From Rivularia sp. MS3 (GTDB taxonomy: Bacteria > Cyanobacteriota > Cyanobacteriia > Cyanobacteriales > Nostocaceae): DNA of 50,968 nt. A program made the position numbers and the translations under genes. Below the pieces are notes generated by a model. That model worked only from the letters and a program-made list of their open reading frames with translations, ran no database searches and was not told the DNA's origin. This document shows positions 21-45,913 of the stretch, one piece after another. Every line of letters begins with the position of its first letter. Positions within the stretch are counted from its first letter, which is position 1. The stretch is from the NCBI GenBank assembly GCA_019192545.1, contig JAHCMI010000068.1, forward strand, positions 1 through 50,968, written 5' to 3'.

Positions 21-90
21 TAAAAGATTGTTAGTAATGAAGGTTTTTGGGGAATTATAGAGGAGAAAAGTTGATTGGAGCATTATAAAG

Positions 91-477: not shown

Positions 478-478
478 A

Positions 479-555
479 CATCTCCCCATCCCCCCATCTC
501 CCCATCCCCCTATCTCCCCATCTCCCCATCTCCCCATCTCCCCATCCCCTCATCT
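479..555. repeat. STRR array, unit atctcccc
   Basis: About nine imperfect copies of the octamer atctcccc, with some units enlarged by an extra c. It lies between two convergent genes: directly after the four-helix gene and five bases before the stop of the glycosidase on the other strand. The unit is the reverse complement of the repeat upstream of the four-helix gene. Confidence 0.9.
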
Positions 556-559
556 ATTC

Positions 560-1951
560 TTAACTCTTCGAGTTAGCTAAAAGATTCGGATACTTGGCTG
601 GGGTGGAAAATAATTCCTGTAAACCAGACAGACGCTGTTGCGATGGTTGTTTGCTTAGGTTCCACAGGGTTTCGTAGAAGAAGAAAGATACTCCGGCAAA
701 GTTGCGATCGCGAACTTCTTTTACTTGTGCTTCGATTTGTTCTACTGGTACGTGTTTGTTTTTTAAGCCGGAAAGAATGCCGATACTTGTAGGAATATGT
801 TTTTTAGCCGCGATGACTTCGGGATACCCCAATTCTTTGATAAACACGTTCATGTCATTGCGGTAAATTTGAATAATCAAATCTTCGATTAATCCCATAC
901 GCTCCCATCTTTGCCAATCTGCTAAAAAGTATTCGTAGGAAAAGCGTTGGGGGTTTGGCGCTACGGAAACAATACAGTTTTGATCGACGGCTTTAATGGC
1001 AAAGAATACGTCTTTCATGAAATCGGTAATCTTATCTGCACGCCACTTTACCCATTCTGGATTTTTATTATCTCTGGGAGGTGCTTTACCGTTATGTTCT
1101 TTTTTGTATAGCGCTACAGTATATCTATCGTATCCATATTCCGATGGTAAGCCGAAATGGTCGTCAAATTGAATGCCATCGATATCGTAATTTTGCACCA
1201 TTTCCACGATTAAATCTTTGATAAATCGCTGCACGTCAGGACGAAACGGATTTAACCAAACTCTATCGTGAACCCCTTCTTTTTTGATTTTGCTGCCGTC
1301 AACTTTACTTGTAAGCCATTGAGGACGACGTTTTGCTAATAGGGAATCGGCAGGAGCCATAAAGCCAAATTCAAACCAGGGAATTACTTTTAAACCCCTT
1401 TCGTGTCCTTCACTAACTGCTTCTGTAAGCATATCGCGTCTTCTAAGTCCAGGTTCTGGATCTACGCTACGTCCAATAACTCTTCTGGCAACTCTACTAG
1501 GATACAAAGTGTAACCCCAATTCCATACCGCAGGATATACAACGTTAAAATTTAAATCTTTGAGGCGCGTTAAAGCATTAGTAAGATTTCTACTTGAAAA
1601 TAAAACATCGCTATCAATGTTAGTTAACCATACCCCTCGTAACTCAGTTAATTGCTCGCGGTTTGTAACAGTTTGCGGTTGAGGAGGTTTAATCGTCGGT
1701 AGCTGCCTTGGTGTAACCGTTGGCAATCGACCAGGTTTACTCGTTGGTACGGGTGGTATAACAGTTGGTAACTTTTGGTTGATAATGGTTGGTTGCTGAC
1801 GAGTTTTAATAATCACTTGAGCCGGTGCGGGAACAGAAAACATCACCCCAGCCATCAGCGAAAGAGTAAAAACAGCTGCAAGAAACGCCGGTTTCTGTCT
1901 GCGTTGACTCAACGAAAACTGGTTAATACACCACTTGACAAATTTTCTCAT
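560..1951 (-). CDS. Secreted glycoside hydrolase-like protein (GHL10 / DUF187 family)
   Basis: 463 residues. The N-terminus is basic, followed by a hydrophobic stretch (about 24-44) ending in 'APAQ', which looks like a Sec signal peptide. Residues 50-95 are a low-complexity Pro/Thr/Lys-rich linker. The rest matches the GHL10 (TIM-barrel glycosyl hydrolase-like) family: 'LRGVWLTNIDSDVLFS' opens the barrel, and 'YDIDGIQFDDHFGLPSEYGYD' is the hallmark active-site strand with paired Asp. Members are exported and thought to act on cell-envelope or exopolysaccharide glycans; the substrate is not known. Its stop is close to the 479-555 STRR. The gene is monocistronic and convergent with the four-helix gene. 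Family confident, substrate unknown. Confidence 0.85.
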   Translation of the reverse strand: MRKFVKWCINQFSLSQRRQKPAFLAAVFTLSLMAGVMFSVPAPAQVIIKTRQQPTIINQKLPTVIPPVPTSKPGRLPTVTPRQLPTIKPPQPQTVTNREQLTELRGVWLTNIDSDVLFSSRNLTNALTRLKDLNFNVVYPAVWNWGYTLYPSRVARRVIGRSVDPEPGLRRRDMLTEAVSEGHERGLKVIPWFEFGFMAPADSLLAKRRPQWLTSKVDGSKIKKEGVHDRVWLNPFRPDVQRFIKDLIVEMVQNYDIDGIQFDDHFGLPSEYGYDRYTVALYKKEHNGKAPPRDNKNPEWVKWRADKITDFMKDVFFAIKAVDQNCIVSVAPNPQRFSYEYFLADWQRWERMGLIEDLIIQIYRNDMNVFIKELGYPEVIAAKKHIPTSIGILSGLKNKHVPVEQIEAQVKEVRDRNFAGVSFFFYETLWNLSKQPSQQRLSGLQELFSTPAKYPNLLANSKS

Positions 1952-2333
1952 AATTATACTAAGTACAAAACTTCACAACTTTGATGACTTCCATAACAAG
2001 GCGGATGTTGCACGAATTGAGAATTGGGGATTGGTAATGGGAAATGAAAATACTAAGCACTGCGTTTACGCACTACTAACAACTAACTCTTAACTCCTAA
2101 CTCCTATCCCCTTCGTATTTTTACCGATACATCATACTGAGTAAATAAAAATGCGGGGTGTGGCACTACATCCTCAATAATTACCTTATGAGTATACTTA
2201 AGTAGTTGAAGCAAAAAAGTGATTCAGTTTACTTGTACATATCATCTACTAGCATGAGTTTGTTGGGTGATTGTACTGATAAATTGAATACCATGTTTGG
2301 ATATTTCTATTAAGAGAAACGAGTGAATTACTG
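1952..2333. other. Divergent intergenic region with short STRR
   Basis: 382 bases between divergent genes. It contains a short heptamer STRR (about 2078-2105, unit aactcct/aactctt). Promoters for both flanking genes should lie here but none stands out. No ORF or RNA gene was recognised. Confidence 0.5.
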
Positions 2334-2840
2334 ATGATTAGCTTGATTGATTCTCAGAACAGTACGACAAGTGATATGGCGGTTGTTCAAAGGTTGGCAA
2401 GAGCGATTAATCTCGCTGCTGCGCCGAATGGATTTGCCAATGGAGAGTTTTCGCTGCTTTTGGCGTGCTGCAATTCTGCGAACAAGCAAGAAGAAATTCT
2501 CAGCGTTTTGAGAGAATTTTCAACGGTGAATATCAGAAAGGTGATTCTTTCATCAAAAGCACAAACGCTTTACTCTAATATCGTTTCCGTACTGGGTTCC
2601 GCTCAACCCGATGCTTTAGTTGTTAGGGGTTTGGAGTCTGTAGAAGCAATTAATGAACTGATTATTTCTACAAATTTGATGCGAGATGAATTTGGTAAAA
2701 AGTTTAAGTTTCCTTTGGTACTGTTCGTGAATGAAGATATTTTACGCAAGTTGATTCGTTTAGCGCCCGATTTGAAAGACTGGGCTGCTAGTACTTTTAG
2801 GTTTCAAAATTATTCCCAAAGAGAGTCGATCGGCTTTTAG
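2334..2840 (+). CDS. Orphan N-terminal domain of a large cyanobacterial TPR/WD-type protein (probably truncated)
   Basis: 168 residues with the pattern of the N-terminal domain in large cyanobacterial multidomain proteins (P-loop and TPR or WD40 proteins): 'FSLLLACCNSANKQEEIL', 'VRGLESVEAINELI', and the block 'FPLVLFVNEDILRKLIRLAPDLKDWA'. In full-length relatives this is followed by several hundred residues. Here the frame closes shortly after 'AASTFRF', and no continuation was seen in the next kilobase. A strong terminator follows at 3003-3045, so the short gene may still be transcribed as a unit. It is either a decayed remnant or a stand-alone adaptor. The family link is from memory and moderately sure; no enzymatic role can be inferred. 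Confidence 0.55.
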   Translation: MISLIDSQNSTTSDMAVVQRLARAINLAAAPNGFANGEFSLLLACCNSANKQEEILSVLREFSTVNIRKVILSSKAQTLYSNIVSVLGSAQPDALVVRGLESVEAINELIISTNLMRDEFGKKFKFPLVLFVNEDILRKLIRLAPDLKDWAASTFRFQNYSQRESIGF

Positions 2841-3002
2841 GAAGTAGGTAATTATAAGTAGATAGATTTGATTGTAATTGCGGAAAATACTGAATGCTGT
2901 TTCTAAGTAAATATTCTTAAACTTATGAGAGTCAGCTTTAGTTTTACTCTACGATAAAGAATTAAAGCAATTTCTGACTTTGACAGATTGTTCCTAGCAC
3001 AG

Positions 3003-3045
3003 CGCCTTATCTTTTCACCCTATACGAAAGATAAGGCGTTTTTAT
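3003..3045 (+). terminator. Rho-independent terminator
   Basis: Perfect 12-bp stem cgccttatcttt / aaagataaggcg (3003-3014 and 3027-3038) with a 12-nt loop, followed by tttttattt. It is 160 bases after the orphan domain gene at 2334-2840 and is the likely end of its transcript. Confidence 0.85.
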
Positions 3046-3149
3046 TTGTGGGTTTGGGAATAAATTACCGATGCTAACGATTTGTTAAGCAAGAATCAAA
3101 GCTTCTATTAGAGGTAATATAGCGGTTTTCAGTCGAATCCAACACACTC

Positions 3150-3207
3150 GAAACCTCACCCCGCCCTACGGGCACTCCTCTCCCTTACTAAGGCTACGGT
3201 GTACACA
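3150..3207. repeat. Dispersed repeat 'aacctcaccc...aaggctacggtgtaca'
   Basis: Shares two blocks (aacctcaccc and aaggctacggtgtaca) with the reverse complement of 20899-20940. Partial relatives with the gtgaggtt end are at 18742-18780 and 25102-25146. Non-coding. Confidence 0.7.
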
Positions 3208-3230
3208 GAAGTCGTTAAAACCATTACCCG

Positions 3231-3399
3231 CCAGGGACTGTAAGTCCCTGGCTAATAGCACAAGTCCTATAAATAGGACTAAATTAATAACTATCATGTT
3301 GTTTTAGGTAATTTTTTAGTCGTCTGTAAGCGAAGCTTTCTCGAAGAGAAGACGACTTGGGCTATTAGCCGGGGGTTTCCAACCCTCGGCGGACTTGTG
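3231..3399. repeat. Nested inverted repeats (structured intergenic element)
   Basis: Several stems nest here: gccagggact/agtccctggc (3231-3253), ggctaatagc (3250-3259) with gctattagcc (3361-3370), cacaagtcc (3259-3267) with ggacttgtg (3391-3399), and agtcgtct/agacgact (3319-3326 and 3350-3357). Their order suggests a non-autonomous mobile element or a foldable RNA rather than coding sequence. Confidence 0.65.
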
Positions 3400-33008: not shown

Positions 33009-33401
33009 ATGGGGCGCGTTTTTGTGTTAATCTTTAATGCCCGTACAGAAAATGAGGGAATTCATACAATTCGGATTGGCGATCGCAATAAAGTGTTGAT
33101 GTTTGAATCCGAAGACGACGCTACGCGCTTTGCATTAATGCTAGAAGCGCAGGATTTTCCTACTCCCGCAGTCGAAGCAATGGATATGTCAGAAATCGAA
33201 CAGTTTTGTAAAAGCGCTGATTATGACTACGAAGTCGTTCCTGCTAACGGTGACTTAATAGTTCCTCCAGAACAAAACGTCGATGAAACTGATTGGCGTG
33301 AAGACGGTTCAACTCCTACCGAACCAAAAGTTCAGCCAGAAGAGGAGATGTCAAACACTGAACTAGACAATATCCGTCGCAAGCTGGAAGGATTGTTATA
33401 A
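33009..33401 (+). CDS. DUF3110 protein
   Basis: 130 residues. The DUF3110 domain covers about 3-85 ('VFVLIFNARTENEGIHTIRIGDRNKVLMFESEDDATRFALMLEAQDFPTPAVEAMDMSEIEQFC'), a family shared by cyanobacteria and plant chloroplasts with no established function. The tail (85-130) is acidic and low-complexity. Soluble, no catalytic motif. It is followed by the hairpin 33461-33492 and then murQ (162 bases), so it may be separate from murQ transcriptionally. Confidence 0.85.
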   Translation: MGRVFVLIFNARTENEGIHTIRIGDRNKVLMFESEDDATRFALMLEAQDFPTPAVEAMDMSEIEQFCKSADYDYEVVPANGDLIVPPEQNVDETDWREDGSTPTEPKVQPEEEMSNTELDNIRRKLEGLL

Positions 33402-33563: not shown

Positions 33564-34475
33564 ATGACTGATTTGCAAGAGCGCGGACATTTACTAACGG
33601 AACAAGTTAATCCTGATAGTTTTAATTTAGATCGGTTAAGCAGCGTGGAATTTGTCGAACTGTTTAATCGCGAAGACGCAAAAGCTGTCGCTGCGGTTGC
33701 TGCTGCAAAAGAAAGTTTAGCGAAAGCGATTGATTTAGCAGCCCAAAGTCTTGAAAAAGGCGGACGCTTATTTTATGTTGGTGCGGGTACTTCTGGTAGG
33801 TTAGGTGTATTAGATGCTGCTGAATGTCCGCCGACTTTTTGTACTCCTCCAGAATTAGTACAAGGTATAATCGCTGGCGGTGCCGGTGCCTTAGTACGTA
33901 GTTCAGAGGACTTAGAAGATTGCGCTCAAGATGGCGAAGCTGCTATGGCACAACGAGAAATTACTCAGCTTGATGTGATAGTAGGTATAACAGCAGGCGG
34001 AACTACTCCTTTCGTCCACGGTGCAATCGATGCAGCTAAAAGCCGGGGTGCCACTACTGTATTCATGGCTTGCGTTCCATCCGAGCAAGTCAGTGTAGAA
34101 GTTGACGTTGATATTCGCTTGCTTACAGGGCCAGAAATATTAGCCGGTTCAACTCGTCTAAAAGCCGGTACTGCAACAAAGTTAGCTCTGAATATTATTT
34201 CTACAGGCGTAATGGTTAAACTTGGTAAAGTTTACGGCAATCGCATGGTAGATGTAGCAGTTACAAATCAAAAGTTACAAGATAGAGCTTTACGAATTTT
34301 ACAAGATTTAACTAATTTAAGTCGCGAAGCTGCTAGCACTTTACTCGAACGTAGCGGTAAATGGGTTAAGTTAGCAATTTTAATGCATGAAACTGGTTTA
34401 GATAAACAACAAGGTGACAAGCTTCTTTCTCAACATCGGGGGAACCTTAGAGAAGCAATTGAAGCGAAAAAGTAA
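33564..34475 (+). CDS. murQ: N-acetylmuramic acid 6-phosphate etherase
   Basis: 303 residues. It cleaves the lactyl ether of MurNAc-6-phosphate to GlcNAc-6-phosphate and D-lactate, in cytoplasmic wall recycling. The SIS domain has 'GGRLFYVGAGTSGRLGVLDAAECPPTF' (sugar-phosphate binding and the catalytic Glu region) and 'VIVGITAGGTTPFVHGAIDAAKSRGA'. 'GPEILAGSTRLKAGTATKLALN' is the second very conserved MurQ block, and the C-terminal UBA-like bundle ends at 'NLREAIEAKK'. Complete and typical. No anmK or MurNAc phosphotransferase is adjacent. Confidence 0.95.
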   Translation: MTDLQERGHLLTEQVNPDSFNLDRLSSVEFVELFNREDAKAVAAVAAAKESLAKAIDLAAQSLEKGGRLFYVGAGTSGRLGVLDAAECPPTFCTPPELVQGIIAGGAGALVRSSEDLEDCAQDGEAAMAQREITQLDVIVGITAGGTTPFVHGAIDAAKSRGATTVFMACVPSEQVSVEVDVDIRLLTGPEILAGSTRLKAGTATKLALNIISTGVMVKLGKVYGNRMVDVAVTNQKLQDRALRILQDLTNLSREAASTLLERSGKWVKLAILMHETGLDKQQGDKLLSQHRGNLREAIEAKK

Positions 34476-34951
34476 AGGATTAAATAATAGCCCATCTGTT
34501 TATTTTAATTATGGATAAGTAACAAAACAAAGATTGTTAAATATCACCCATCAAGATTAATATGGTTGTTTTATCTGATTCGGATAATTACTTATCATCA
34601 GTTTTTCTTTGCAGCTAAGTTTAAGTCAAATTGCGCTTTTGCATCAATGAATTACAAATGTTTAACCGAACACAATAGTAACTACCAACCGTATTAATTT
34701 TGATGAATTACACATTTATAGTCAAACTGTCTGGCTCTTTGCTTGAAATCGTAAATTAATTTGCTTTTATATATCCAAAATTATTTATTATTCTCTTAAG
34801 ATAAATATAACTACATTCAATAGTGATATTTAAGTGATTGTACTTATACAAAAACATGAATAATTAATTATTCAATGGGTATAAACCCTGTTGGCGTTTG
34901 AAAACTGTCCACAGATAATCGGAGGTGCAGTTATCTAAAAGCTAGTTAATC
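34476..34951. other. 476-base intergenic region before the signalling cluster
   Basis: AT-rich, no ORF. It should hold the promoter for the V4R-like/Roadblock genes. A purine-rich ggaggtg at 34921 is 25 bases before the ATG, too far to be its ribosome binding site. No other element recognised. Confidence 0.45.
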
Positions 34952-35413
34952 ATGTTACGTAAAGAACTTGGAGATTTTTCCAGTATCGTTTGCTTCAAAG
35001 CTGCTATTACTGGAATGGAAGAAGCTTTAGGAGAAAAAGCAACTGCAATTGCTTTAATCGCAGCAGGCCGCAGTCGCGGTAAAAATCTTGCCAAAGAATT
35101 AGGTTTGTCACAATCAAATATTGGATGGGATTTAGTTGCAGATAAAGTTGGTTTCGCCCTAGGTATCAATGGAACCAAGCTTTGTAAAATAGAAAGTATT
35201 GTTGAAAAAGACGATGTAGTTAAAGTATTCACTTCAGAAACTTTGTGTTCGGCTGGCGAACCTGAAGGCTCAACTCGTAAATGCACCTATACTTTGGGCG
35301 CGGTTTGGGGAGTGATAGAAGAAATTAGTGGCAAGCGCTTAAAAGGCAGCCATACCGAATCCGTACTTCGTGGTGGAAATCACGATGTTTTTGAATTTAC
35401 CCCTTTAGTATAA
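34952..35413 (+). CDS. Conserved signalling-associated protein, V4R-like
   Basis: 153 residues, soluble. The first half is helical ('MLRKELGDFSSIVCFKAAITGMEEALGEKATAIALIAAGRSRGKNLAKELG'). The second half has the shape of a V4R (4-vinyl-reductase-like) small-molecule-binding domain: 'CTYTLGAVWGVIEEISGKRLKGSHTESVLRGGNHDVFEFTPL', like the usual Y-x-x-G-x-x-x-G-x-x-E...G-x-x-x-C-x-F end but with H-D-V-F in place of the last Cys. The assignment is tentative. It is 80 bases upstream of the Roadblock gene, so probably co-transcribed with it, and it could be a sensor or adaptor for the GTPase module. I know of no characterised homologue. Confidence 0.6.
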   Translation: MLRKELGDFSSIVCFKAAITGMEEALGEKATAIALIAAGRSRGKNLAKELGLSQSNIGWDLVADKVGFALGINGTKLCKIESIVEKDDVVKVFTSETLCSAGEPEGSTRKCTYTLGAVWGVIEEISGKRLKGSHTESVLRGGNHDVFEFTPLV

Positions 35414-35493
35414 AGATGATGAAATCTAATAGCCTTATTGATTTGGCTATCAGAAATTTTGGTTAATTAATTACAAGGAATAAGGACAATAAA

Positions 35494-35865
35494 ATGCCTA
35501 TCAACGCTGGCAAAATCGAAAGTATTTTACAAAATTTTGTAAGCGGTACTAGTGATATTCAAGGAGCAACCCTTGTTTCTCCTGATGGTTTATCTTTAGC
35601 TACAGTTTTACCAAGTACGATGGACGATGAAAAAGTATCTGCGATGTCTGCGGCGATGCTATCTTTGGGCGAACGTATAGGTAGTGAATTATCAAGAGGC
35701 AGTATAGACCGTATTTACGTTGAAGGCGATAAAGGCTATGGTGTATTAACCAACTGTGGAGATGATGCTGTATTACTAGTATTAGCTAGTCAATCAGCTA
35801 AACAAGGTTTATTGATGTTGGAAATCAAGCGACTCACAGAAGAATTAAAATTGGTTTTAATGTAA
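35494..35865 (+). CDS. Roadblock/LC7-domain protein (MglB-like)
   Basis: 123 residues, a single Roadblock/LC7 domain: 'IESILQNFVSGTSDIQGATLVSPDGLSLATVLPSTMDDEKVSAMSAAMLSLGERIGSEL', then 'IDRIYVEGDKGYGVLTNCGDDAVLLVLAS' and a C-terminal helix. Such proteins dimerise and act as GTPase-activating or scaffolding partners (MglB of Myxococcus, CvnB of Streptomyces conservons). Good aaggaataagg ribosome binding site. Its neighbour downstream is the small GTPase at 36217, the classic pairing. The terminator-like hairpin 36094-36112 lies between them, so coupling may be partial. Confidence 0.88.
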   Translation: MPINAGKIESILQNFVSGTSDIQGATLVSPDGLSLATVLPSTMDDEKVSAMSAAMLSLGERIGSELSRGSIDRIYVEGDKGYGVLTNCGDDAVLLVLASQSAKQGLLMLEIKRLTEELKLVLM

Positions 35866-36216
35866 GCTTGAATCAAGGATATTTTTTGGCTCCGATGTAA
35901 ATTCGGCACTCATAAAAATAAAAAAGTTTGCATTCAAAAGATTTATTAAGCAATTGCACTAAGTTGATAGTAGTCCGCGTTTATTACTTGATTTACTAAT
36001 TTTAAATAGGAAAACAATAGTTCATAAATAAATTCCTAGATAAATGCTAATTTTAAAAATCCAAGTAACTAACCGGACGTGAAAGCGTTAGTAGAAGGTT
36101 TAGTAAACCTTCATTTTTATCCGAAATAACAACAATTATCAAGAAAAAAAAAGCGTAAGTCATATTATTGATAATCGGCTATTTCATTCTGCTGTCTATT
36201 TTTTTTAGCAAATTCT
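35866..36216. other. 351-base spacer between Roadblock and GTPase genes
   Basis: AT-rich, with the terminator-like hairpin at 36094-36120 and nothing else recognised. Confidence 0.45.
36094..36120 (+). terminator. Terminator-like hairpin after the Roadblock gene
   Basis: gaaggttta/taaaccttc (36094-36102 and 36104-36112; in practice an 8-bp stem with a 3-nt loop) followed by atttttat. If active, the GTPase gene needs its own promoter, or it sets a lower level. Confidence 0.55.
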
Positions 36217-36771
36217 ATGGAAATCATGCGTATGGTTGTTACCGGTCCGGTGGGGGCTGGTAAATCTACATTTATTCGTTCAATTAGCGAAATTGAAGCT
36301 GTAGATACAGACCGCAAAGCAACAGATGAAAGTTCATTACTCAAGAAAAACACTACTGTTGCTTTTGATTTTGGTAGATTGCAGTTTAACCCAGATATGG
36401 CACTGCATCTTTACGGTACACCAGGTCAAGAACGATTTAATTTTATCTGGGATATGTTAATTCGTAAGGCTCATGCCTACATATTACTAGTAGCTGCCCA
36501 TAGACCGGGAGAATTTCGTTATGCTCGTAAAGTGATTTCTTATATGAATCAAAGAGCGCAAATTCCCATGATTATTGGGTTGACTCATATGGATTGTCCT
36601 GATGCATGGTCTCAAGAAAATATTATCGCTGCTTTAGGTTATTACGATATCAGTTCTCAACCTCCTGTTGTTATTGTTAATCCTAATGAAATGTCTTCTG
36701 TTGCTAATGCCGTCATTAAATTAGTACAACATTACGTACAGTATAATGCTTCAAAAGCTATGGCTGTGTAA
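36217..36771 (+). CDS. Small Ras-like GTPase (COG2229 / CvnD-MglA type)
   Basis: 184 residues. Walker A is 'GPVGAGKST' (10-18), G2/switch I 'KKNTTVAFDFG', G3 'HLYGTPGQERF' (the usual Asp is a Thr-Pro-Gly-Gln form as in MglA/CvnD GTPases) and G4 'GLTHMD' (T-H-x-D instead of N-K-x-D). The G2 'T-T-V-A-F-D-F-G' is typical of COG2229. Cytoplasmic; expected to cycle GTP/GDP with the Roadblock protein at 35494 as GAP or partner. The adjacent PATAN protein and phototaxis cluster suggest cell-pole or pilus-machinery positioning. Family confident, role inferred. Confidence 0.9.
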   Translation: MEIMRMVVTGPVGAGKSTFIRSISEIEAVDTDRKATDESSLLKKNTTVAFDFGRLQFNPDMALHLYGTPGQERFNFIWDMLIRKAHAYILLVAAHRPGEFRYARKVISYMNQRAQIPMIIGLTHMDCPDAWSQENIIAALGYYDISSQPPVVIVNPNEMSSVANAVIKLVQHYVQYNASKAMAV

Positions 36772-37152
36772 TTCTTTAATATCTGCCTTTACTAGAAAAT
36801 GTTTCTATCTGTTTTATTAATGCAATTAACAACAAATATTTTATTAAATAAATAAAATATTATAGCTATAATTTTCTATTTAAGCACGATTAGTATAAGT
36901 TTATTTCTCGAAATGGTCTTAAGCTATTGTTCTTGTATTTGTCTCATTAAAGTTAAATATTTGTATCAAAACCAATCTGTTATAAAAAATATAACAATCT
37001 TTGATGCAGAATGAATTTATAATATAAGTGCTTTGTATAATATTTTTATTCAAACTTAGATGAAGCACTTATTTGTCAGTGTATCCGGTCTGAGACAGTA
37101 CAATAAATAGATTAATTAGTGTTCATTAAAAGAGTATTTTACGTAGAAAAAT
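36772..37152. other. 381-base spacer before the stand-alone PATAN gene
   Basis: AT-rich, no ORF. It holds a 10-bp inverted repeat ataagtgctt/aagcacttat (37024-37033 and 37063-37072) with a tataat-containing loop, possibly a regulatory site of the 37153 gene. Confidence 0.45.
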
Positions 37153-38154
37153 ATGGCATTTACTGGTTACTTATCTAAATTTTCTTTACCAGAAATATTT
37201 GAATTTTTAGAGCAAGGATTCAAAACTGGCTTGCTTAGTATTCGTACTTTAAAATCCGAGCAGGATGAACCAGTCGAGAATCATTATATATGGCTGCGTC
37301 AAGGACGTATCATAGCGGCAGCTAGCAAACTAGATAATCAGGGATTAGTTTCACTGATTAATCACAGAGGTTGGGTAAGCCATAATTGTGCTATGGAAAA
37401 GTTTCAAGCCAGCGGTGGAAAAATGGCAATGGGCTTATGCCTTAAATCTCAAGGTTTGCTGTCAGCAGAACAGCTAACACTATTGTTTCGTGCCCAAATA
37501 ATGGGACAAGTTTCTCGTTTATTTGAACTTGAAAATGGTAAGTTTAATTTTGATTTTCAAGCTCCTATCCCAGTTGCAGAAATGACTGGACTAAGTATGA
37601 TAACTACTGAAGCCACAATCAAAGGCTTACGAAGCCTGCGAAACTGGTCTGCATTAACAGCAAAACTACCAGATCCCACCTCAGCTATCTTAAAGAAAAC
37701 AGAGATTATATCTAATGTACAGTTGGATTCTCAAGAATCAAGAGTTTGGGAATATGCGAATGGTGAAACTGACTTGAACCAAATAGCTAATCAGTTGTTA
37801 ATTCCATTAGAAAAAGTACAGCAGATTGCTTTCCGATTAATTGTCAGCAATTTAGTAGAAGAGGCTTTTATTATGCATAACAACAGAGTTCCTATAGTTG
37901 AAAATACTGAAGAATTTGCTGATTTAAATTCTACAAATGGATTTGGTCAATTATCATCTGAGGCTTTTGCAGCAAATTTATTTACTTTAAATACTCAAGA
38001 ACCTTCATATACTTTGAACTCTAGAGAAGAACAAACTGTAGATGTAGAGAACAAAATATTAGAGAAAACCCCTAGTTTTTCCAGTGGTATTGATGTCAGT
38101 CAATCATTTTTACAAAATTTGGTTGGTTTCCTAAAAACAAAAGTTGAAAACTAA
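37153..38154 (+). CDS. PATAN (DUF4388) domain protein without receiver
   Basis: 333 residues. The DUF4388/PATAN N-terminal domain covers about 1-165: 'FTGYLSKFSLPEIFEFLEQGFKTGLLSIRT...YIWLRQGRIIAAAS', then 'LTLLFRAQIMGQVSRLFELENGKFNFDF' with the family's G-x-F-x-F end. A winged-helix-like segment follows at about 190-240 ('VWEYANGETDLNQIANQLLIPLEKVQQIAFRLIVSNLVEE'). The last 85 residues are polar and probably disordered. There is no REC domain, unlike PatA/PixG. PATAN proteins of cyanobacterial phototaxis bind the pilus motor PilB and other partners; here the domain sits next to a GTPase, so it may be the GTPase-controlled output (inference). Confidence 0.85.
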   Translation: MAFTGYLSKFSLPEIFEFLEQGFKTGLLSIRTLKSEQDEPVENHYIWLRQGRIIAAASKLDNQGLVSLINHRGWVSHNCAMEKFQASGGKMAMGLCLKSQGLLSAEQLTLLFRAQIMGQVSRLFELENGKFNFDFQAPIPVAEMTGLSMITTEATIKGLRSLRNWSALTAKLPDPTSAILKKTEIISNVQLDSQESRVWEYANGETDLNQIANQLLIPLEKVQQIAFRLIVSNLVEEAFIMHNNRVPIVENTEEFADLNSTNGFGQLSSEAFAANLFTLNTQEPSYTLNSREEQTVDVENKILEKTPSFSSGIDVSQSFLQNLVGFLKTKVEN

Positions 38155-38405
38155 CAGGACGTAATTTATTTTCCCTGATTTGGGAACTGTATATTTATTG
38201 GTTGCTGGAATCTTGGATATACATTAATGCTGGCAAATAGTGTATTTTCTTTATTTATAAGACTATAGTTAAAAAATAAGGTTAATTATTCTCGGCTTAG
38301 TACAAATTTTGTAACTAAGAATATTTTTTACTATTGTGAGTTATTTATAATTACGCATTCATGTATACCAAAATGTTCTAATAGCCTCTTTGGCTTAAAA
38401 CTATC

Positions 38406-38580
38406 AGGAATGGCCGCAATTTTCACAATGCCCGATTGGTGCATGATACTAAAACTTTTTTAATACGTTCAGAATTAAAAAAATGTCACAAATTAGGTAG
38501 CCAAAAGTGGCACGAAGTGACATATTACGAATTATAATCATAGACTCTACAATATAAATGTGTCGGTTGCGGTCATTCCT
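38406..38580 (-). mobile_element. MITE copy 4 (175 bp, with insertion)
   Basis: Ends aggaatggccgcaa / ttgcggtcattcct, orientation as copy 2. The interior aligns (ttggtgcatgatact, tacgttcagaattaa) but about 50 bp of unrelated sequence is added near tggcacgaagtgaca. Diverged, probably old. Confidence 0.8.
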
Positions 38581-38871
38581 AACTATATTAAATAGGTTTA
38601 TGTTGAAATTATAGAGATTTCAAACATACTTTAATATGTAACATTTTTATCTTAACAGCAGACAATTTATAAGAAAAAGTATTTAGGATACGATAAAAAC
38701 ATTGGGTAACGTAAATAATATAATATAAGATAAAAATAATAATTTTATTTTATTATGTTTTTAATTTTATTTTTGAATAAAAGTTGAAAATATCAATAAA
38801 ATATCTTGATTAAAGTGTATGCAAATATAATTATATTGCTATTAATTTTATTTGAGATTTTGATAATATCA

Positions 38872-38957
38872 GGACTTACGCAACGGCAACGTTAATCAGC
38901 GTTTTCCAGACATTTAAGATTTCCCCAACTACCCTTTACAATGGGGGTTTGCGTCAG
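38872..38957. mobile_element. Degenerate MITE-like element, ends ggacttacgcaa
   Basis: The left end ggacttacgcaa is intact; the right end (tttgcgtcagtt) is a poor match of the reverse complement. It shares the left end with the better-preserved element at 45397-45458. Confidence 0.45.
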
Positions 38958-39420
38958 TTATAAATATATTTTTACAACTTATTTTATAGGATTTTAGATT
39001 ATATATGATTAATAAATAATATTTCAATATAATCATTTGCACGAGTTTAAATCCGTACAAACAACATATGTGTAAAAAGAGAAAATCAGAATATACACTG
39101 ATTCAGTTATAGTGACATTCAATCTAAGATGATATATAACCAGTTGGTGCATATTCGTAGGACTACAGCCATTCTTGAAATGATTCGTGAAATCTCTACA
39201 GATGTATAGAAAAAATAATCAATAATTTTTTCTGTAGATTCATGTAACAGATATTCTCGGTCTTTAATAAAAAGAATTATTAAACTGTACTTCGAGTTAG
39301 GGCAACCATCCGGAGTTAGTTTGCTTTTTTATATTGCAAACAAAGAAACATACCTCCTGACTGCTATAAGCGCTAGCCTGGAAAATTAAAGGAAAGACCT
39401 ATTAATAAAGGGAACAAAGT

Positions 39421-40638
39421 ATGAGCCATCCGGAAATGATGGTATCGAGTGAACTACTCGATGAATTTAGAACTTGTACTCAAATACAATATAGTGGCAA
39501 ATTAAATATCAAAAGTTCCAAAGGGCATAAGTGGACATTCTACTATCGATTGGGACGTATTGTTTGGGCTACTGGAGGAACTCATCCTTTCCGACGTTGG
39601 CGCAGACACATGACTCAACATTGCCCGGAAATTGATATTGACAAAATGCAGTTTGATTCCAAAGAATTATCAATATCTAATGATTATTGGGATTATAAAC
39701 TGCTTGAAGTCTTGCATGAAAATCAGAAAATTAAACGCGAGCATATCAACTCTGTTGTAGAAAGGACTATAGCAGAATTGTTGTTTGATTTAGCTCAACA
39801 AGCACATTTCAATCAAATCCAGTGCGATCGCACTAATGATGTGATATTGGAAGCCCCAATGAGCTTTACAAGTGCAGATATGTCTTTGAAGTTCATGCAA
39901 GATAGCTGGAAGCATTGGTCGGAAGCTGGATTAGCAAATTTTTCTCCAGACTTAGCACCAATTCTCCGCAGACCGGAACAATTACAGCAAATGGTGAGTC
40001 CGGCTGTCTACAAAAATTTTGTGAATTTGATGAACGGCAAATACACTTTACGAGATTTAGCCGTCAAAATGAAGCAAAATCCCTTACCTATAGCTCGTTC
40101 TTTATTACCTTACGTGCTTAAAGGGATAATTGAACTAATCAAAGTTCCCGATCTGCCTTTCAAGATAGGTGATGGTCAACAAATATCGAATATAGAACCA
40201 GAACCTGAAGCTCCGTCCGGACCTTTGATAGCTTGCGTGGATGATAGTCCGCAAGTCTGCCAAATGCTCGAACAAATTCTTGTTCCTAAAGGGCTGAGAT
40301 TTATTAAGATTCAAGACCCCGTTCAGGCTCTACCAATCTTGATTGAAAACAAGCCAGATTTGATTTTCTTGGATTTAGTGATGCCTGTTGCAAGTGGTTA
40401 CGAAATCTGCGCTCAATTGCGTCGAATTTCAGTATTTGCTAACACACCGGTGATTATACTTACCGGTAGTGATGGTCTATTTGATAGAGTTCGTGCCAAA
40501 GTAGTAGGCTCTACAGACTTCATTACTAAGCCTGTTGTTGCTGACAAAGTAATGGGAGTTATACGAAAGTATATACAAACTCCACCACAGAATAAAAACA
40601 ATTCTGATAGCCAAACTTTGTCATTTGGACATTCTTAG
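39421..40638 (+). CDS. pixG: PATAN-REC response regulator (PatA/PixG family)
   Basis: 405 residues. N-terminal PATAN domain (about 1-200, 'YSGKLNIKSSKGHKWTFYYRLGRIVWATGG'), then linker, then a REC domain (about 268-388): 'LIACVDDSPQVCQMLEQIL', phospho-acceptor Asp318 ('LIFLDLVMPVASG'), 'VIILTGSDG' and the conserved Lys in 'FITKPV'. It is the first gene of a cluster in the order PATAN-REC, CheY, CheW, MCP, CheA, the layout of the pix/ptx (phototaxis) and hmp/pil loci. Its job would be to pass the CheA signal to the type IV pilus motor. Symbol by synteny with pixJ downstream; the hmpA name is the alternative. Confidence 0.85.
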   Translation: MSHPEMMVSSELLDEFRTCTQIQYSGKLNIKSSKGHKWTFYYRLGRIVWATGGTHPFRRWRRHMTQHCPEIDIDKMQFDSKELSISNDYWDYKLLEVLHENQKIKREHINSVVERTIAELLFDLAQQAHFNQIQCDRTNDVILEAPMSFTSADMSLKFMQDSWKHWSEAGLANFSPDLAPILRRPEQLQQMVSPAVYKNFVNLMNGKYTLRDLAVKMKQNPLPIARSLLPYVLKGIIELIKVPDLPFKIGDGQQISNIEPEPEAPSGPLIACVDDSPQVCQMLEQILVPKGLRFIKIQDPVQALPILIENKPDLIFLDLVMPVASGYEICAQLRRISVFANTPVIILTGSDGLFDRVRAKVVGSTDFITKPVVADKVMGVIRKYIQTPPQNKNNSDSQTLSFGHS

Positions 40639-40888: not shown

Positions 40889-41251
40889 ATGAGTACTATT
40901 TTAGTTGTTGAAGACGGTATCACTGATATGCAGATGATTAGCCGTTATTTAGAACAAGCAGGTTATCGCGTCATGGGAGCAAAAAGTAGCGAGGAAGCTC
41001 AAGCAAAAATCACCGAGAATAAACCAGACGTGATATTTCTGGACGTAATTTTGCCTGGTAAAAGCGGTTTTGAAATCTGTAGGGAACTGAAAGACAATCC
41101 TAATACTAAGACTATTCCAGTAGTATTTTGTTCTACTAAGAATAGCGATGTAGATAAAATGTGGGGCGATATGTTAGGCGCGGATGCCTATATTTCTAAG
41201 CCCGTACAGAAAGACGAGTTAGAAGGAGTATTGCAAAAATTAAATAAATAA
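40889..41251 (+). CDS. pixH: CheY-like single-domain response regulator (PixH type)
   Basis: 120 residues, one REC domain. The acidic pocket is in 'TILVVEDGITDMQMI', phospho-acceptor Asp52 is in 'VIFLDVILPGKSGFE', Ser/Thr in 'VVFCSTKNSD' and Lys in 'YISKPVQ'. No output domain. It fits the second gene of the pix order and would carry a phosphoryl group from PixL, as a diffusible output or a phosphate sink. Confidence 0.88.
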   Translation: MSTILVVEDGITDMQMISRYLEQAGYRVMGAKSSEEAQAKITENKPDVIFLDVILPGKSGFEICRELKDNPNTKTIPVVFCSTKNSDVDKMWGDMLGADAYISKPVQKDELEGVLQKLNK

Positions 41252-41313: not shown

Positions 41314-41790
41314 TTGGATACGACGGAAGAAAAGTTTTTAAGCTTCAATTTGGGTGTTAAAGATACAGCAATTATTTCATTGAACAACGTCACAGAAATT
41401 TTACCCGTGTCTTTAAATGAAGTTTGCTGCGTTCCTCAGATGCCTAGCTGTGTATTTGGTATCTATAATTGGCGCGGTGAAATGCTGTGGTTGATTGATT
41501 TAGAAGAAATGTTAGGCTACTTACCTTATTCCTATGGTAGTAGCTTTGTTTCAAAAATGATGGCAATTATTTTAGAGAAAGAAGGCAAATCTTTGGGATT
41601 GCTGGTGCGGCAAATTATGGATATTGAAGAGTTTAATTTAAAACAAATGAAGCCACCATCACCCGAATTAGTTTCTCAAGAAGTCGTTCCTTTTCTAGAA
41701 GGATATTTTATTAATTCTTCAGAAGAGATGATTGTCAGCTTAGATGCCTCTGCAATTTTGCAATCTCCTCTATGGTCAATTCATAATTAG
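41314..41790 (+). CDS. pixI: CheW-like adaptor (PixI type)
   Basis: 158 residues from a TTG at 41314 that has aaggaa eight bases upstream; no ATG fits better near the domain start. CheW domain: 'FLSFNLGVKDTAIISLNNVTEILPVSLNEVCCVPQMPSCVFGIYNWRGEMLWLIDLEEMLG' with the N-x-R-G-x-x-L-x-x-I/V-D motif. It couples the receptor to the CheA kinase in the membrane-associated or cytoplasmic array. Third gene of the cluster. Confidence 0.88.
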   Translation: MDTTEEKFLSFNLGVKDTAIISLNNVTEILPVSLNEVCCVPQMPSCVFGIYNWRGEMLWLIDLEEMLGYLPYSYGSSFVSKMMAIILEKEGKSLGLLVRQIMDIEEFNLKQMKPPSPELVSQEVVPFLEGYFINSSEEMIVSLDASAILQSPLWSIHN

Positions 41791-41901: not shown

Positions 41902-44900
41902 ATGACTAGCGCATATCAAGAAAATACAGGAAATGGACATCATATTCCTGGTATTGAACCATCCGATAAACTTAGCGAGTTAAATAAGAAAGCTTCAGAT
42001 TCATCAAACAGCGAGCAGAAATTTAAGAGTTGGAGAATACAGTTAACATCAATTCTTAATCAAATTCGTAAAGCTAAAAACTTAGAAGAATTAATACAGG
42101 TTACAACAGCAGTTATTAAAGAAAAAATTTCCAGCGATAGAGTCGTACTTTATCGTTTTGATTCTTCAACCTCTGGGGTAGTTATAGGAGAATCAGTTGC
42201 TTCCGGTTGGACTCCTGCAATCAACGAAAATATCCCAGCGATGATTTTCGGTTTAGATACAAGGGAAGAATATTTAGAAGCACTCAGCATTAACGATATT
42301 AAGGAAGTTGAGCTTACAGCTTACAAAGCACAGATTTTAGAAAAATTTCAGATCGCAGCTAGCTTAAGTGTTCCGATTCTAGCTGAAAATCAAATCTGGG
42401 GATTATTAGGCGTTCAAAATTGTGCAACTGCACGTCATTGGGAAGAATCGGAAATTAGCTTGTTATCTCAAGTCACCACCGAAATTTCTCATAAGTTAGA
42501 AAGCTTTAAATTAGAAAGAAAACTCGAACAGCAAGCCCACGAGTTTAAATCGATCACCAAAGTTATTGATAAAATTCAGCTTGCTTCTAGTCTAGATAAG
42601 TTATTCCGCACAACGACTCAGGATGTCCGCGAATTAATACAGTGCGACCGTTTAGCGGTTTATCGCTTCAATGCTGATTGGAGTGGTAAATTTATTGCCG
42701 AATCTGTAGCTAATGGTTGGGTACCTCTTGTTGGACCAGGGATTGAAACTGTTTGGGAAGATACTCATTTACAGGAAACCAGAGGAGGTCGTTATCGGCA
42801 GCATGAAATCTTAGTTGCTAACGATATCTATGAGATGAATCATGCTCCTTGCCATGTAGAAATATTAGAGCAGTTCCAAGTTAGAGCTTATGTAATTGTT
42901 CCTGTATTTGCAGGACAAAAACTCTGGGGTTTACTTGGTGCCTATCAAAATAGTGGTACCTATGAATGGCAGCAAGAGCAAATTAAACTGTTGCGTCAAA
43001 TTGCAGTTAACTTAGGTGTAGCTGTATCTCAAGCAGAATTTGCACAGCAGAGTGAAGAAAAATCACAGCAGTTAGCTAAGACAGCAGAACGTCAGCAAAG
43101 TCTTATTAGCTTGACTCGTAAGATTGGTAAAGGACTTACAGAAAAAGTTACTAATTCATCTCAATTTAATGGAATTCTTCAAACAACAGTATATGAAGTT
43201 CGACGCTTATTAGAAACTGACCGTACTGTAGTTTATCGCTTTAACGAAGATTGGAGCGGTGAGTTTATTGCCGAATCTGTAGGTAAAAACTGGAAGCCTT
43301 TTGTAGAAACAGAAATTGACCAAGATTTATTACAAGAAAACGGTCATTGCGATTCTCTTCGCAGTCTCAACGCTATAAAAGAACAAGATACTTATCTTCA
43401 AGATAATCAAGGAGGTCGTTATAAGAAAAAAACTAGTTTCGTTGTTAACGATGTAGAAAAACAAGGATTTCCTCCCTGCTACAAAGAGCTTTTAGACCAG
43501 TTTGAAGCTAAAGCTTATCTTACCGTTCCTATTTTCCAAGGTGATAAACTTTGGGGATTATTAGCAAGCTATCAACATTCTGCTACTCGTCAATGGCAAG
43601 AATTTGAAATCAGCGCTATGGAGCAGATTGCCGTGCTGCTTGCCGTAGCTATGCAACAGTCACAAACATTAGATAGATACGAGCAGCAATCCAAGAAGAT
43701 GGAACGAGATGCAAATCGCGATCGCGCTTTATCTAAAGTCATTGACAAAATCAGACAATCACTCGACATTGAAAGCATCTTTCTAACTACTACTCAAGAG
43801 ATGCGGGCACTTTTAAATACCGACCGCGTAGCAGTATACCGTCTCAATCCAGATTACAGTGGGGAATTTATCGCTGAGTCTGTAAGCCCTGGTTGGCTGC
43901 CTTTGGTAGATAGACAGCATCAAATTCGACGATTACAAGAAAGTATAAGTAGCTGTAGTCGGATGCGAACTCTGTTTAAGGAAAACGAAATAGGCACTAC
44001 GGGTAATGCAGACCCTTACTTACAAAGTAGTTTAGCTGGTAAAGGTTCAGAAAATCAATCCTACGTTGTTTCTGATATATACGCTAAGGGATTTAACGAT
44101 TGTTACGTCCAGGTGTTGGAGCAATATCAATGTAAGGCTTACGCTATTGTCCCCATCTATCAAGGACAACAACTTTGGGGAATGCTAGCAGCTTATCAGA
44201 ATGACGGTCCCCGCGAATGGGAGGATGGAGAAGTTAACCTGTTAACTAAAATCGCCAACCAATTAAGCGTAGCGCTACAGCAAGTTGAATTTCTCCATCA
44301 GCTACAGTCACAGTCTTCACAGGTTGCAGAAGCAGCAGCAAGAGAAAAGCAAGCCAGAGAATCTTTACAGCAAGGAGCGATGCAACTGCTCTCAGCAGTT
44401 AGGCCTGCCTTAAACGGAGATTTAACAGTACGCGCACCAATTACAGAAGACGAACTAGGCACAATCGCCGACGCTTATAACAACACCTTACAAGCATTAC
44501 GGAAAATCGTTCTCCAAGTTCAAGCAGCTGCTCAACAAGTTGCAGAGACTTCGGGTAACAGCAACGTATCTTTGAATGGATTGACAGACTTAGCACATCA
44601 ACAGTCGAAAGAAATTAGTGGTGCTTTGACTGAAATTCAACAAATGGTAGATTCTACTCAAGAAGTGGTATCAAATGCCGAATCAGTGCAAGTTGCAGTA
44701 CAAAAAGCCAATCAAACTGTAGATTCAGGCGATGCAGCCATGAATATGACTGTAGAAGCCATTCAAGGCATTCGCGAGACAGTTTCTCAAACCAGTAAAA
44801 AGATTAAGCGTTTGAGTGAATCTTCCCAGAAGATTTCCAAAGTGGTTAACTTAATTAGTAACTTTGCAACTCAAACAAACGTACTGGCGCTAAATGCAGC

Positions 44901-45351
44901 TATTGAAGCTACCCGTGCGGGAGAATACGGTAAAGGCTTTGCAGTAGTAGCCGATGAAGTACGCTCCTTATCGCGTCAGTCAGCAGCTGCAACCATCGAA
45001 ATTGAAAAGCTAGTTCAAGAAATTCAAGAAGAAACGGGTGAAGTAGCTGTAGCGATGGAAACAGGTATTCAGCAGGTAGTCGAAGGTACCAATCTGGTAA
45101 ATGAAACCAGACAAAACCTCAACGACATTGTTGACGCAACCGCTCAAATCAGCGATTTACTCGAAAGAATTACCGATGCAACCCAAACTCAGATGCTGCA
45201 ATCGGTATCAGCGACAGCATCAATGAAAGATGTAGCCCAAATCTCCCAAAAAACTTCCACCGAAGCTAACAGTATTGCCTCAGTATTCGAGCAGCTATCT
45301 GAAATGGGACAGGAATTGTTAGCAAGTGTAAGTAAATTCAAACTCAACTAA
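41902..45351 (+). CDS. pixJ: Methyl-accepting chemotaxis receptor with four GAF domains (PixJ-type photoreceptor)
   Basis: 1149 residues, no transmembrane helix seen. Four GAF domains at about 55-205, 230-375, 420-585 and 620-800; a HAMP at about 828-880; and the MCP signalling hairpin with '[27 protein letters not shown]' at about 994-1020. GAF2 has the signature set of a bilin-binding cyanobacteriochrome: Trp285 and Asp287 ('[10 protein letters not shown]'), 'GGRYR', and Cys317-His318 ('[10 protein letters not shown]'), spaced like Trp289, Asp291, Cys321 and His322 of Anabaena PixJ. GAF3 has Cys526-Tyr527 and GAF4 Cys734-Tyr735, without the His; GAF1 lacks the Cys. Four GAFs with only GAF2 binding phycocyanobilin is the AnPixJ design, a red/green photoreceptor. 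Confidence 0.92.
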
Positions 45352-45553: not shown

Positions 45554-45913
45554 TTGGCAACAAGTATTATACAAACAAAAAGTTTTAATTTTGCTTTGGA
45601 AATAATTAATCTTTATACTAAACTTCAACAACACAAGGAATATGTAATTTCCAATCAATTATTTAAATCCGGGACAAGTATCGGAGCCAATGTTGAAGAA
45701 GCCAGTGGAGGTCAAAGTAGAAAAGACTTCTTAGCGAAAATGTATATTGCTTACAAAGAAGCTAGAGAGACTAAGTACTGGTTGCGATTACTAAAACATT
45801 CTAAATTAGTAAATATTGATGTTACAAAAGAACTTAAATATATAGATGAAATAATTCGTATTTTAAGTTCAATAGTTAAAACAACCGAACAATCAATAAA
45901 CAAACAAACTTAA
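45554..45913 (+). CDS. Four-helix bundle protein (S23 family), second copy
   Basis: 119 residues. The start is a TTG at 45554 with a perfect aggagg (45541-45546) seven bases upstream. Family pattern: 'FALEIINLYTKLQQH...NQLFKSGTSIGANVEEASGGQSRKDFLAKMYIAYKEARETKYWLRLL' (the S-x-S-I-x-A-N-x-x-E-A segment and the E-x-x-E-x-x-Y-W helix), closer to the classic form than the copy at 91-477. It lies between pixJ and pixL, inside the phototaxis operon, with inverted STRR arrays on both sides. Translation signals are strong, so it is probably made. Nothing links it to phototaxis; it looks like an insertion. Confidence 0.85.
   Translation: MATSIIQTKSFNFALEIINLYTKLQQHKEYVISNQLFKSGTSIGANVEEASGGQSRKDFLAKMYIAYKEARETKYWLRLLKHSKLVNIDVTKELKYIDEIIRILSSIVKTTEQSINKQT

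What the first reader, a model, noticed from the sequence alone, without database searches (positions are those of the whole stretch)
34952..38154. V4R-like / Roadblock / GTPase / stand-alone PATAN module beside a phototaxis Che cluster
Seen: four plus-strand genes encode a V4R-like protein, a Roadblock/LC7 protein, a COG2229 GTPase with P-loop 'GPVGAGKST' and a PATAN protein lacking REC, directly upstream of pixG. Known: Roadblock-GTPase pairs (MglB/MglA, CvnB/CvnD) set polarity or relay signals; PATAN proteins contact pilus motors. Inference: this may be a GTP-switched polarity unit that positions or reverses type IV pili in hormogonia in response to light, with the V4R-like protein as ligand sensor and the PATAN protein as effector. 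I know of no description of this four-gene set.
Basis: partly seen in the sequence, partly recalled or inferred. Interest (0 to 1): 0.72.

Follow-up and report, generated by a model that had tools for sequence, protein, structure and literature searches.

The report
Ras-like GTPase switch beside phototaxis genes
Four neighbouring cyanobacterial genes look like a small molecular switch (a sensor, a Ras-like GTPase, its partner and an output protein) that recurs in several bacterial phyla with two alternative sensors, and that in this lineage sits as a removable cassette next to the genes steering movement by light.

Summary
Four + strand genes encode a V4R-like protein, a Roadblock, a small GTPase and a REC-less PATAN (DUF4388) protein, as reported; they lie 1.27 kb, not immediately, upstream of pixG. 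The set is a conserved module. In 70 cyanobacterial loci with adequate context, Roadblock lies near the GTPase in 65, PATAN in 57, and a sensor in 55: V4R-like, or a protoglobin (not in this window). Module genes are co-directional (210 of 211). It recurs in Chloroflexi with true V4R, in Thermus with protoglobin, and as natural PATAN-GTPase and GTPase-V4R fusions. Most PATAN partners end in a similar amphipathic helix-like motif. The pix link is real but local: the cassette sits between murQ and pixG in four other genomes, while four relatives have an empty site, and pixG keeps its own conserved upstream region. Best reading: a ligand-gated Roadblock/GTPase switch whose PATAN effector, here, probably biases the type IV pilus motor beside the Pix pathway. 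The module is well supported, the pilus role is inference. PATAN near MglA/MglB was already in print; my searches showed no description of the sensors, fusions or tail.

The parts
34952..35413 (+). V4R-like protein (153 aa), proposed ligand sensor
   Evidence: ORF; no significant Pfam hit; family similar to one set of true V4R proteins by profile comparison, not to a second set
35494..35865 (+). Roadblock/LC7 protein (MglB-like), 123 aa
   Evidence: PF03259 8e-16; one of two found in the genome
36217..36771 (+). Small Ras-like GTPase, 184 aa; G1 GPVGAGKST, G2 TT, G3 GTPGQ, G4 THMD
   Evidence: Pfam GTPase families; motif counts over 96 cyanobacterial sequences
37153..38154 (+). PATAN (DUF4388) protein without REC, 333 aa; sub-threshold winged-helix match after PATAN, then a variable linker
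   Evidence: PF14332 5.6e-24; HTH_47 0.022, below its cut-off
38095..38151 (+). C-terminal tail of the PATAN protein (last 19 residues), possible amphipathic helix
   Evidence: C-termini of 40 cyanobacterial PATAN ORFs, pattern counts, non-cyanobacterial C-termini
39049..39420 (+). pixG upstream region, ~70% identical to that of relatives lacking the cassette; marks the right edge of the cassette
   Evidence: blastn against the murQ-pixG gaps of L215 and L216, E 1.35e-35 and 9e-38
33009..33401 (+). DUF3110 gene, left flank marker
   Evidence: PF11360 8.8e-40; conserved flank
33564..34475 (+). murQ-like SIS gene, left flank of the cassette site
   Evidence: GKRP_SIS_N 2.5e-18; conserved flank; the name murQ is recalled
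39421..40638 (+). pixG-like PATAN-REC response regulator
   Evidence: Pfam DUF4388 and Response_reg
40889..41251 (+). pixH-like REC protein
   Evidence: Response_reg 7e-24
41314..41790 (+). pixI-like CheW
   Evidence: PF01584 1e-27
41902..45351 (+). pixJ-like receptor, four GAF plus MCP signalling domain
   Evidence: PF01590 four stretches, PF00015
46029..49694 (+). pixL-like CheA hybrid kinase
   Evidence: Hpt, HATPase_c, CheW, Response_reg

Best explanation
The four genes are one signalling module: a small-molecule sensor (V4R-like here, protoglobin elsewhere) acts on a Roadblock dimer, which sets the nucleotide state of a Ras-like GTPase; the GTPase controls a PATAN effector that carries a C-terminal amphipathic tail (docking to membrane, or to Roadblock/GTPase). 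In this lineage the module was placed as a cassette next to the Pix phototaxis cluster. There the PATAN protein most likely competes or cooperates with the PATAN-REC protein PixG at the type IV pilus extension motor PilB, adding a second (metabolic or redox) input to light-directed movement. Shown: the conserved module, the two alternative sensor genes, the fusions, the recurring tail motif and the cassette at the pix site. Inferred: that the V4R-like protein binds a ligand, the GEF/GAP role of Roadblock, PATAN as effector, and the pilus output.
For: Of 70 cyanobacterial loci with at least 4 kb on both sides: Roadblock 65, PATAN 57, both 55, V4R-like 32, protoglobin 37, at least one sensor 55; module genes co-directional 210 of 211. 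The sensor abuts Roadblock for 32 of 44 V4R-like and 29 of 44 protoglobin genes; GTPase and PATAN are neighbours in 71 ordered pairs. Protoglobin PF11563 4e-18 in the second module of the same genome. Chloroflexi sets with all four genes, L066 and L071; V4R in 15 of 36 PATAN-linked non-cyanobacterial loci against 0 of 35 others. Natural fusions: PATAN-GTPase L067; GTPase-V4R L099 (V4R 9.1e-17). Thermus set DUF4388-GTPase-Roadblock-protoglobin. Same cassette at the pix site in L203, L204, L156 and, with Roadblock reduced to a remnant, L205. PATAN regulators bind PilB in Synechocystis (PMC12288463 and PMC10519157 passages).
Against: 15 of 70 loci have no V4R-like or protoglobin gene nearby, and 13 of 70 no PATAN. 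Among the 88 loci only the window and L156 have the full pix set; L203-L205 add three. Four relatives keep murQ-pixGHIJL without the cassette, so Pix does not need it. Roadblock is lost at L205. pixG has its own conserved upstream region, and terminator-like sites lie between Roadblock and GTPase and just after PATAN, so one transcript is not implied. V4R membership of the window protein is borderline. No structure, complex, expression or ligand data.
Confidence: 0.5

Rival explanations
1. It is a general sensor-GTPase switch with no special link to pili. Its PATAN output acts on other targets (for example two-component proteins or, through the helix-turn-helix-like part, gene expression), and the pix neighbourhood is a local accident of insertion.
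For: Most of the 88 loci are not next to pix. Chloroflexi examples sit near ORFs that match the pixG or pixL profiles (response-regulator and kinase type) and alpha/beta-hydrolase-like ORFs (by eye). The PATAN protein has only sub-threshold winged-helix matches (HTH_47 0.022; HTH_20 0.0013 in L079).
Against: Cyanobacterial PATAN regulators that have been studied bind PilB, and the pix position is shared by two genera.
Confidence: 0.3
2. A polarity unit in the strict MglA sense: the GTPase oscillates between poles and reverses filaments or pili, with Roadblock as GAP.
For: Roadblock-GTPase pairing as in MglB-MglA; a Che-type cluster next door, as Frz is linked to MglA (PMC4316618 section 18).
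Against: The GTPase lacks the Group 1 signature (TVPGQ, arginine in G2) and has GTPGQ and TT instead; no polarity evidence; the cassette is absent from relatives with pix.
Confidence: 0.12
3. A decaying or recently acquired cassette with little function in this strain.
For: Presence/absence at the pix site within the genus and loss of Roadblock in L205.
Against: All four window ORFs are intact; identity within the genus is 69-96% over the four products with the order kept, and another genus keeps them at 46-83%.
Confidence: 0.08

Closest known systems
MglA/MglB polarity module (Myxococcus, Thermus)
   Same: small Ras-like GTPase next to a Roadblock partner; links to chemosensory systems and type IV pili
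   Different: GTPGQ/TT signature instead of TVPGQ/arginine; added V4R-like or protoglobin gene and PATAN protein; no polarity data
MglA Groups 2-5 of Wuichet and Sogaard-Andersen 2014, especially Group 5 near PATAN
   Same: GTPGQ in G3, Thr in G2, Roadblock and sometimes PATAN neighbours already reported
   Different: the cyanobacterial clade has [TS]HxD in G4 (91 of 96) instead of [NT]KxD; the words V4R and protoglobin do not occur in the held text of that paper
Actinobacterial conservon (CvnA-D)
   Same: works alike: sensor plus Roadblock plus GTPase in one operon
   Different: the conservon sensor is a histidine-kinase-like protein; no PATAN among its four core proteins (listing of PMC13343842)
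TRAPP / Ragulator (eukaryotes, Asgard archaea)
   Same: V4R/Bet3-fold and Roadblock/longin-fold proteins together with a Ras-like GTPase
   Different: separate bacterial genes and a GTPase-V4R fusion; no GEF activity or assembly shown
Pix/TaxD1 phototaxis cluster
   Same: pixG-H-I-J-L gene set downstream
   Different: the four-gene cassette is an accessory, absent from the same site in four relatives

Membership tests
Roadblock/LC7 (MglB-like) | Robl_LC7 domain above Pfam cut-off | tested here: met
   58 bits, cut-off 23
Roadblock/LC7 (MglB-like) | Asp-Gly pair of partners of MglA Groups 2-5 | tested here: met
   SPDGL in the window protein; D and G at least 90% conserved in the alignment of 41; feature from PMC4316618 section 15; that it is the same pair is my reading
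MglA Groups 2-5 | GTPGQ in G3 and Thr in place of the G2 arginine | tested here: met
   GTPGQ in 89 of 96 and each T of TT in 95 of 96 cyanobacterial sequences, window included
MglA Group 5 | G4 consistent with [NT]KxD | tested here: not met
   THMD here; [TS]HxD in 91 of 96
MglA Group 5 | position in the published MglA tree | not tested
   published alignment not at hand
MglA Group 1 | TVPGQ and arginine next to the G2 Thr | tested here: not met
   GTPGQ and TTVAFD
PATAN (DUF4388) | DUF4388 domain above cut-off | tested here: met
   85 bits, cut-off 25
V4R (PF02830) | Pfam score above cut-off | tested here: not met
   no V4R hit for the window protein; weak hits in 2 of 15 (best 0.016) and 3 of 16 (best 0.0054) scanned relatives, where unrelated families score alike, DUF7317 0.0024
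V4R (PF02830) | profile similarity to true V4R | tested here: inconclusive
   against 11 cyanobacterial V4R: prob 80, E 1.5e-5, above 60 of 60 decoys; against 13 Chloroflexi/Aquificota V4R: prob 0.5, 4 of 60 decoys higher, although those two V4R sets match each other at prob 92
V4R (PF02830) | V4R/Bet3 fold | not tested
   structure job accepted, interrupted, service then closed
Actinobacterial conservon | histidine-kinase-like CvnA beside the Roadblock-GTPase pair | tested here: not met
   none among the ORFs between 33009 and 39421; the CheA-like pixL lies about 9 kb downstream
TRAPP-like GEF | GEF activity of V4R plus Roadblock on the GTPase | not testable with these tools
   needs biochemistry
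Pix phototaxis cluster | PATAN-REC, REC, CheW, GAF-MCP, CheA in order | tested here: met
   domains by Pfam; that this order defines Pix is recalled

The most novel reading that the evidence does not exclude
Bacteria have a TRAPP-like, ligand-gated switch: a V4R (Bet3-fold family) or protoglobin sensor docks on a Roadblock dimer and acts as the exchange factor or GAP of a Ras-like GTPase, which in turn releases a PATAN effector held by an amphipathic tail. Cyanobacteria plugged this switch into phototaxis, so that metabolic or gas state gates light-steered pilus placement. It would make the Bet3 + Roadblock + GTPase partnership older and wider than the archaeal-eukaryotic line.
Probability: 0.22. 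Interest if true: 0.9.

Novelty: new variant of a known kind. Interest (0 to 1): 0.7.

Why it matters
How cyanobacteria set pilus polarity in phototaxis is an open question: passages of the 2025 review PMC12288463 call for work on it, and a term search of its text found neither 'GTPase' nor 'MglA'. This cassette gives a concrete candidate switch with natural with/without pairs of close strains. More broadly, a conserved set of V4R or protoglobin sensor, Roadblock, Ras-like GTPase and PATAN, with natural GTPase-V4R and PATAN-GTPase fusions, would be a new class of ligand-gated small-GTPase signalling in bacteria and bears on the origin of TRAPP-type GTPase regulators.

Tried and rejected
Direct homology of the V4R-like family to solved structures by sequence: nothing significant, best E 1. 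RomY as a known PATAN co-GAP: the term search of its paper found no 'DUF' or 'PATAN', so dropped. Strict mutual exclusion of V4R-like and protoglobin: rejected, 14 of 70 loci have both. 'pix linkage is general': rejected. Anti-phage defence: only weak P-loop matches of the GTPase. Promoter-like sites: 30 against a shuffle mean of 26.2; terminator-like sites: 6 against 1.9, two of them on the + strand at 36094 (between Roadblock and GTPase) and 38171 (after PATAN). The strict tail motif matched 57 of 78 distinct cyanobacterial PATAN ORFs of 270 or more codons; shorter ORFs were dropped. Of the 21 misses, 19 look like near-matches by eye and two (L030, L031) do not; two further 257-codon PATAN ORFs in L030 and L031 also lack it. 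In shuffles the tail moment alone is only weakly unusual (median p 0.04 for the 57, 0.10 for 35 others); its position, basic charge and recurrence are the argument.

No model was obtained, so no fold search was made.
Full report
OBSERVATION. The four ORFs exist where stated, all on the + strand: 34952-35413, 35494-35865, 36217-36771, 37153-38154. Pfam gives Robl_LC7, Ras-like P-loop GTPase matches and DUF4388 (PATAN) without a receiver domain; the first protein has no significant family (NCBIfam adds nothing specific). Downstream lie pixG, H, I, J, L by domain content. Gaps are 80, 351, 381 and, to pixG, 1,266 bp, so 'directly upstream' is loose. Terminator-like sites at 36094 and 38171 leave the number of transcripts open.

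A SECOND COPY AND A FIFTH PLAYER. The same genome has one further GTPase of this family (57% identical). It lies in a cluster PATAN-GTPase-Roadblock followed by a protein that Pfam calls Protoglobin, 4e-18. The two Roadblock genes found in the genome, the one protoglobin found and the two shortest of eight DUF4388 frames are all in these two clusters.

CONSERVATION IN CYANOBACTERIA. The GTPase was found in 31 of 147 genomes sampled from the order and 37 of 386 from the phylum (where at most 8 candidates per genome were scored), so it is patchy. I fetched every GTPase place listed by those two searches, as stretches of at most about 20 kb and often cut by contig ends, plus 8 cyanobacterial loci of the named collection: 88 loci with the window. 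Several come from one genome, so they are not independent. Within 6 kb of the GTPase, of 88: Roadblock 80, PATAN 69, V4R-like 37, protoglobin 44. Of the 70 with at least 4 kb on both sides: Roadblock 65, PATAN 57, both 55, V4R-like 32, protoglobin 37, either sensor 55, both sensors 14, neither 15; the window's full set 26. Module genes lie on the GTPase's strand in 210 of 211 cases (255 of 257 over all 88). Sensor genes have Roadblock as a co-directional neighbour within 1 kb in 32 of 44 (V4R-like) and 29 of 44 (protoglobin) cases, typically sensor then Roadblock; the median gaps near 50 bp are between stop-to-stop frames, so true gaps are longer. These profiles were built from the loci themselves, so counts of weak members lean towards inclusion.

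OUTSIDE CYANOBACTERIA. Of its 71 non-cyanobacterial loci, 36 have a PATAN neighbour (E below 1e-20); of these 15 have V4R, 2 protoglobin and 11 Roadblock. The 35 without such a neighbour have V4R 0, protoglobin 1 (L096, whose DUF4388 match is sub-threshold) and Roadblock 29. Fourteen of the 15 are Chloroflexi and one Aquificota, so they are not independent. Ten V4R proteins (L099 and nine others from eight loci) were checked with Pfam's own PF02830 model: seven exceed the cut-off and three fall below it. L071 has PATAN-GTPase-Roadblock-V4R with V4R above the cut-off; L066 has the same set, its V4R by my profile only. A Thermus thermophilus plasmid carries DUF4388-GTPase-Roadblock-protoglobin as annotated; a Thermaceae locus, L079, shows the same four by Pfam or profile. 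Natural fusions, one case each: PATAN-GTPase in one ORF (L067, Chloroflexi) and GTPase-V4R in one ORF (L099, Aquificota), next to PATAN.

IS THE FIRST PROTEIN V4R? Mixed. For: profile match to 11 true cyanobacterial V4R proteins (prob 80; 42-sequence version prob 74, score 38.5 against a maximum of 25.6 in 60 decoys); a phmmer hit of 0.008 from the L099 V4R domain to the relative in L167. Weak: Pfam V4R hits in 2 of 15 and 3 of 16 relatives (best 0.016 and 0.0054), all without reaching significance, while unrelated families reach similar values (DUF7317 0.0024, ALOG in 4 of 16). Against: no V4R hit for the window protein; no PDB match; no match to the 13 Chloroflexi/Aquificota V4R proteins (prob 0.5; 4 of 60 decoys score higher), although the two true V4R sets match each other (prob 92). 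The unrelated control gave prob 0.1. A structure could not be obtained. I call it V4R-like, probable but unproven.

GTPASE. Both T of G2 in 95 of 96 and G3 GTPGQ in 89 of 96 cyanobacterial sequences fit the published signature of MglA Groups 2-5. G4 is [TS]HxD in 91 of 96, a departure from the [NT]KxD of Group 5 (PMC4316618 section 15); PATAN-linked GTPases outside cyanobacteria gave NK in 29 of 36 by a simple pattern.

PATAN TAIL. Most PATAN partners end in a short helix-like motif after a variable linker: in cyanobacteria of the type SQSFLQNLVGFLRSK (strict pattern 57 of 78, 19 of the 21 misses near-matches by eye), and in Chloroflexi, Aquificota, Actinobacteria and others of the type KSLVNRLINRIRSL at or near the C-terminus (mean net charge +3.2 in 35; L127 lacks it and L119 is doubtful). 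In the L067 fusion a similar stretch precedes the GTPase. This suggests membrane targeting or docking on Roadblock/GTPase; neither was tested.

THE PIX SITE. In L203 and L204 (same genus) and L156 (another genus; the four products 46-83% identical) the order is DUF3110-murQ-[V4R-like, Roadblock, GTPase, PATAN]-pixGHIJL; L205 (same genus) is alike but keeps only about the last 22 codons of Roadblock, as read by eye. In L215, L216, L217 (same genus) and L218 (another genus) the order is DUF3110-murQ-pixGHIJL with no cassette; in L217 pixG and pixL are each split over two ORFs. L219 has pix without the cassette and without murQ in the stretch. About 372 bp before pixG (39049-39420) match the empty-site strains at 70%; the stretch between murQ and the V4R-like gene found no significant match, so the left edge is open. 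The cassette thus lies within 34476-39048. In a GTPase tree the five pix-linked members fall in a group of eight leaves with support 0.78, which also holds a truncated contig (L206), L207 (not beside pix) and a lone divergent GTPase (L036). One insertion with later losses is the simplest reading, not proven.

MECHANISM. Sensor-Roadblock and GTPase-PATAN adjacency suggest two contacts: sensor on Roadblock, GTPase on PATAN. Roadblock/longin dimers act mainly as GEF, sometimes GAP, platforms for small GTPases (PMC10933270 passages). PATAN regulators bind PilB in Synechocystis, and PixG goes to the leading pole (PMC12288463 passages; PMC10519157 passages). PATAN proteins also turned up among proteins co-occurring with SgmX in Myxococcus (PMC11580455 passages). 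From these I infer that the module adds a ligand-dependent input to the pilus motor beside Pix. Bet3 of TRAPP is homologous to V4R (PMC2253512, part 1 of 2 read), which makes V4R + Roadblock + GTPase reminiscent of TRAPP; that is a resemblance, not membership.

PRIOR ART. PMC4316618 (abstract, passages, sections 15 and 18) reports that some Group 1 and 5 MglA genes lie near PATAN genes and cites Makarova 2006 (not seen) for MglB near PATAN. The two targeted searches for V4R or protoglobin with Roadblock, MglA/MglB or PATAN listed 3 and 2 papers; I saw passages of four of the five entries' papers and no description of this module. The wider searches showed only part of their hits where these were many (20 of 44, 20 of 43, 20 of 1,370), by title and start of abstract. 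All this is one open-access library, so absence is weak evidence. PMC9090330, PMC9481161, PMC11580455, PMC10519157, PMC10933270 and PMC12288463 were seen as passages; PMC13343842 and PMC3000849 as starts of abstracts in a listing; Han 2022 only as cited.

VERDICT.

Noticed in passing
45554-45913: Small ORF (119 aa) between pixJ and pixL that looks like a four-helix-bundle (S23-type) protein; recalled, not tested.
   Followed up: no
L038, L039, L040, L041: Arrays with two Roadblock genes, each next to a V4R-like or protoglobin gene, with one or two GTPases and no PATAN called.
   Followed up: partly
L205:14801-15260: Roadblock gene of the pix-linked module lost except for about its last 22 codons while the other three genes stay.
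   Followed up: yes
L070, L073, L074, L080, L084, L085, L088, L089, L092: In Chloroflexi an alpha/beta-hydrolase-like ORF lies between the GTPase and V4R genes (family not tested).
   Followed up: no
L010:10031-10663: Roadblock of the second module has an N-terminal extension starting MPLGNIIKLLKEAF, another helix-like peptide, similar in L063.
   Followed up: no
window 36217-36771 and relatives: G4 motif [TS]HxD instead of [NT]KxD in 91 of 96 cyanobacterial GTPases; effect on nucleotide choice unknown.
   Followed up: partly
L030:12347-14905, L031:10864-13383: Long ORFs (about 850 codons) matching the pixG profile a few kb from the module, with further PATAN genes.
   Followed up: no
L217:8740-9959 and 2-3252: pixG and pixL of this cassette-free relative are each split over two ORFs; real breaks or assembly errors.
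   Followed up: no
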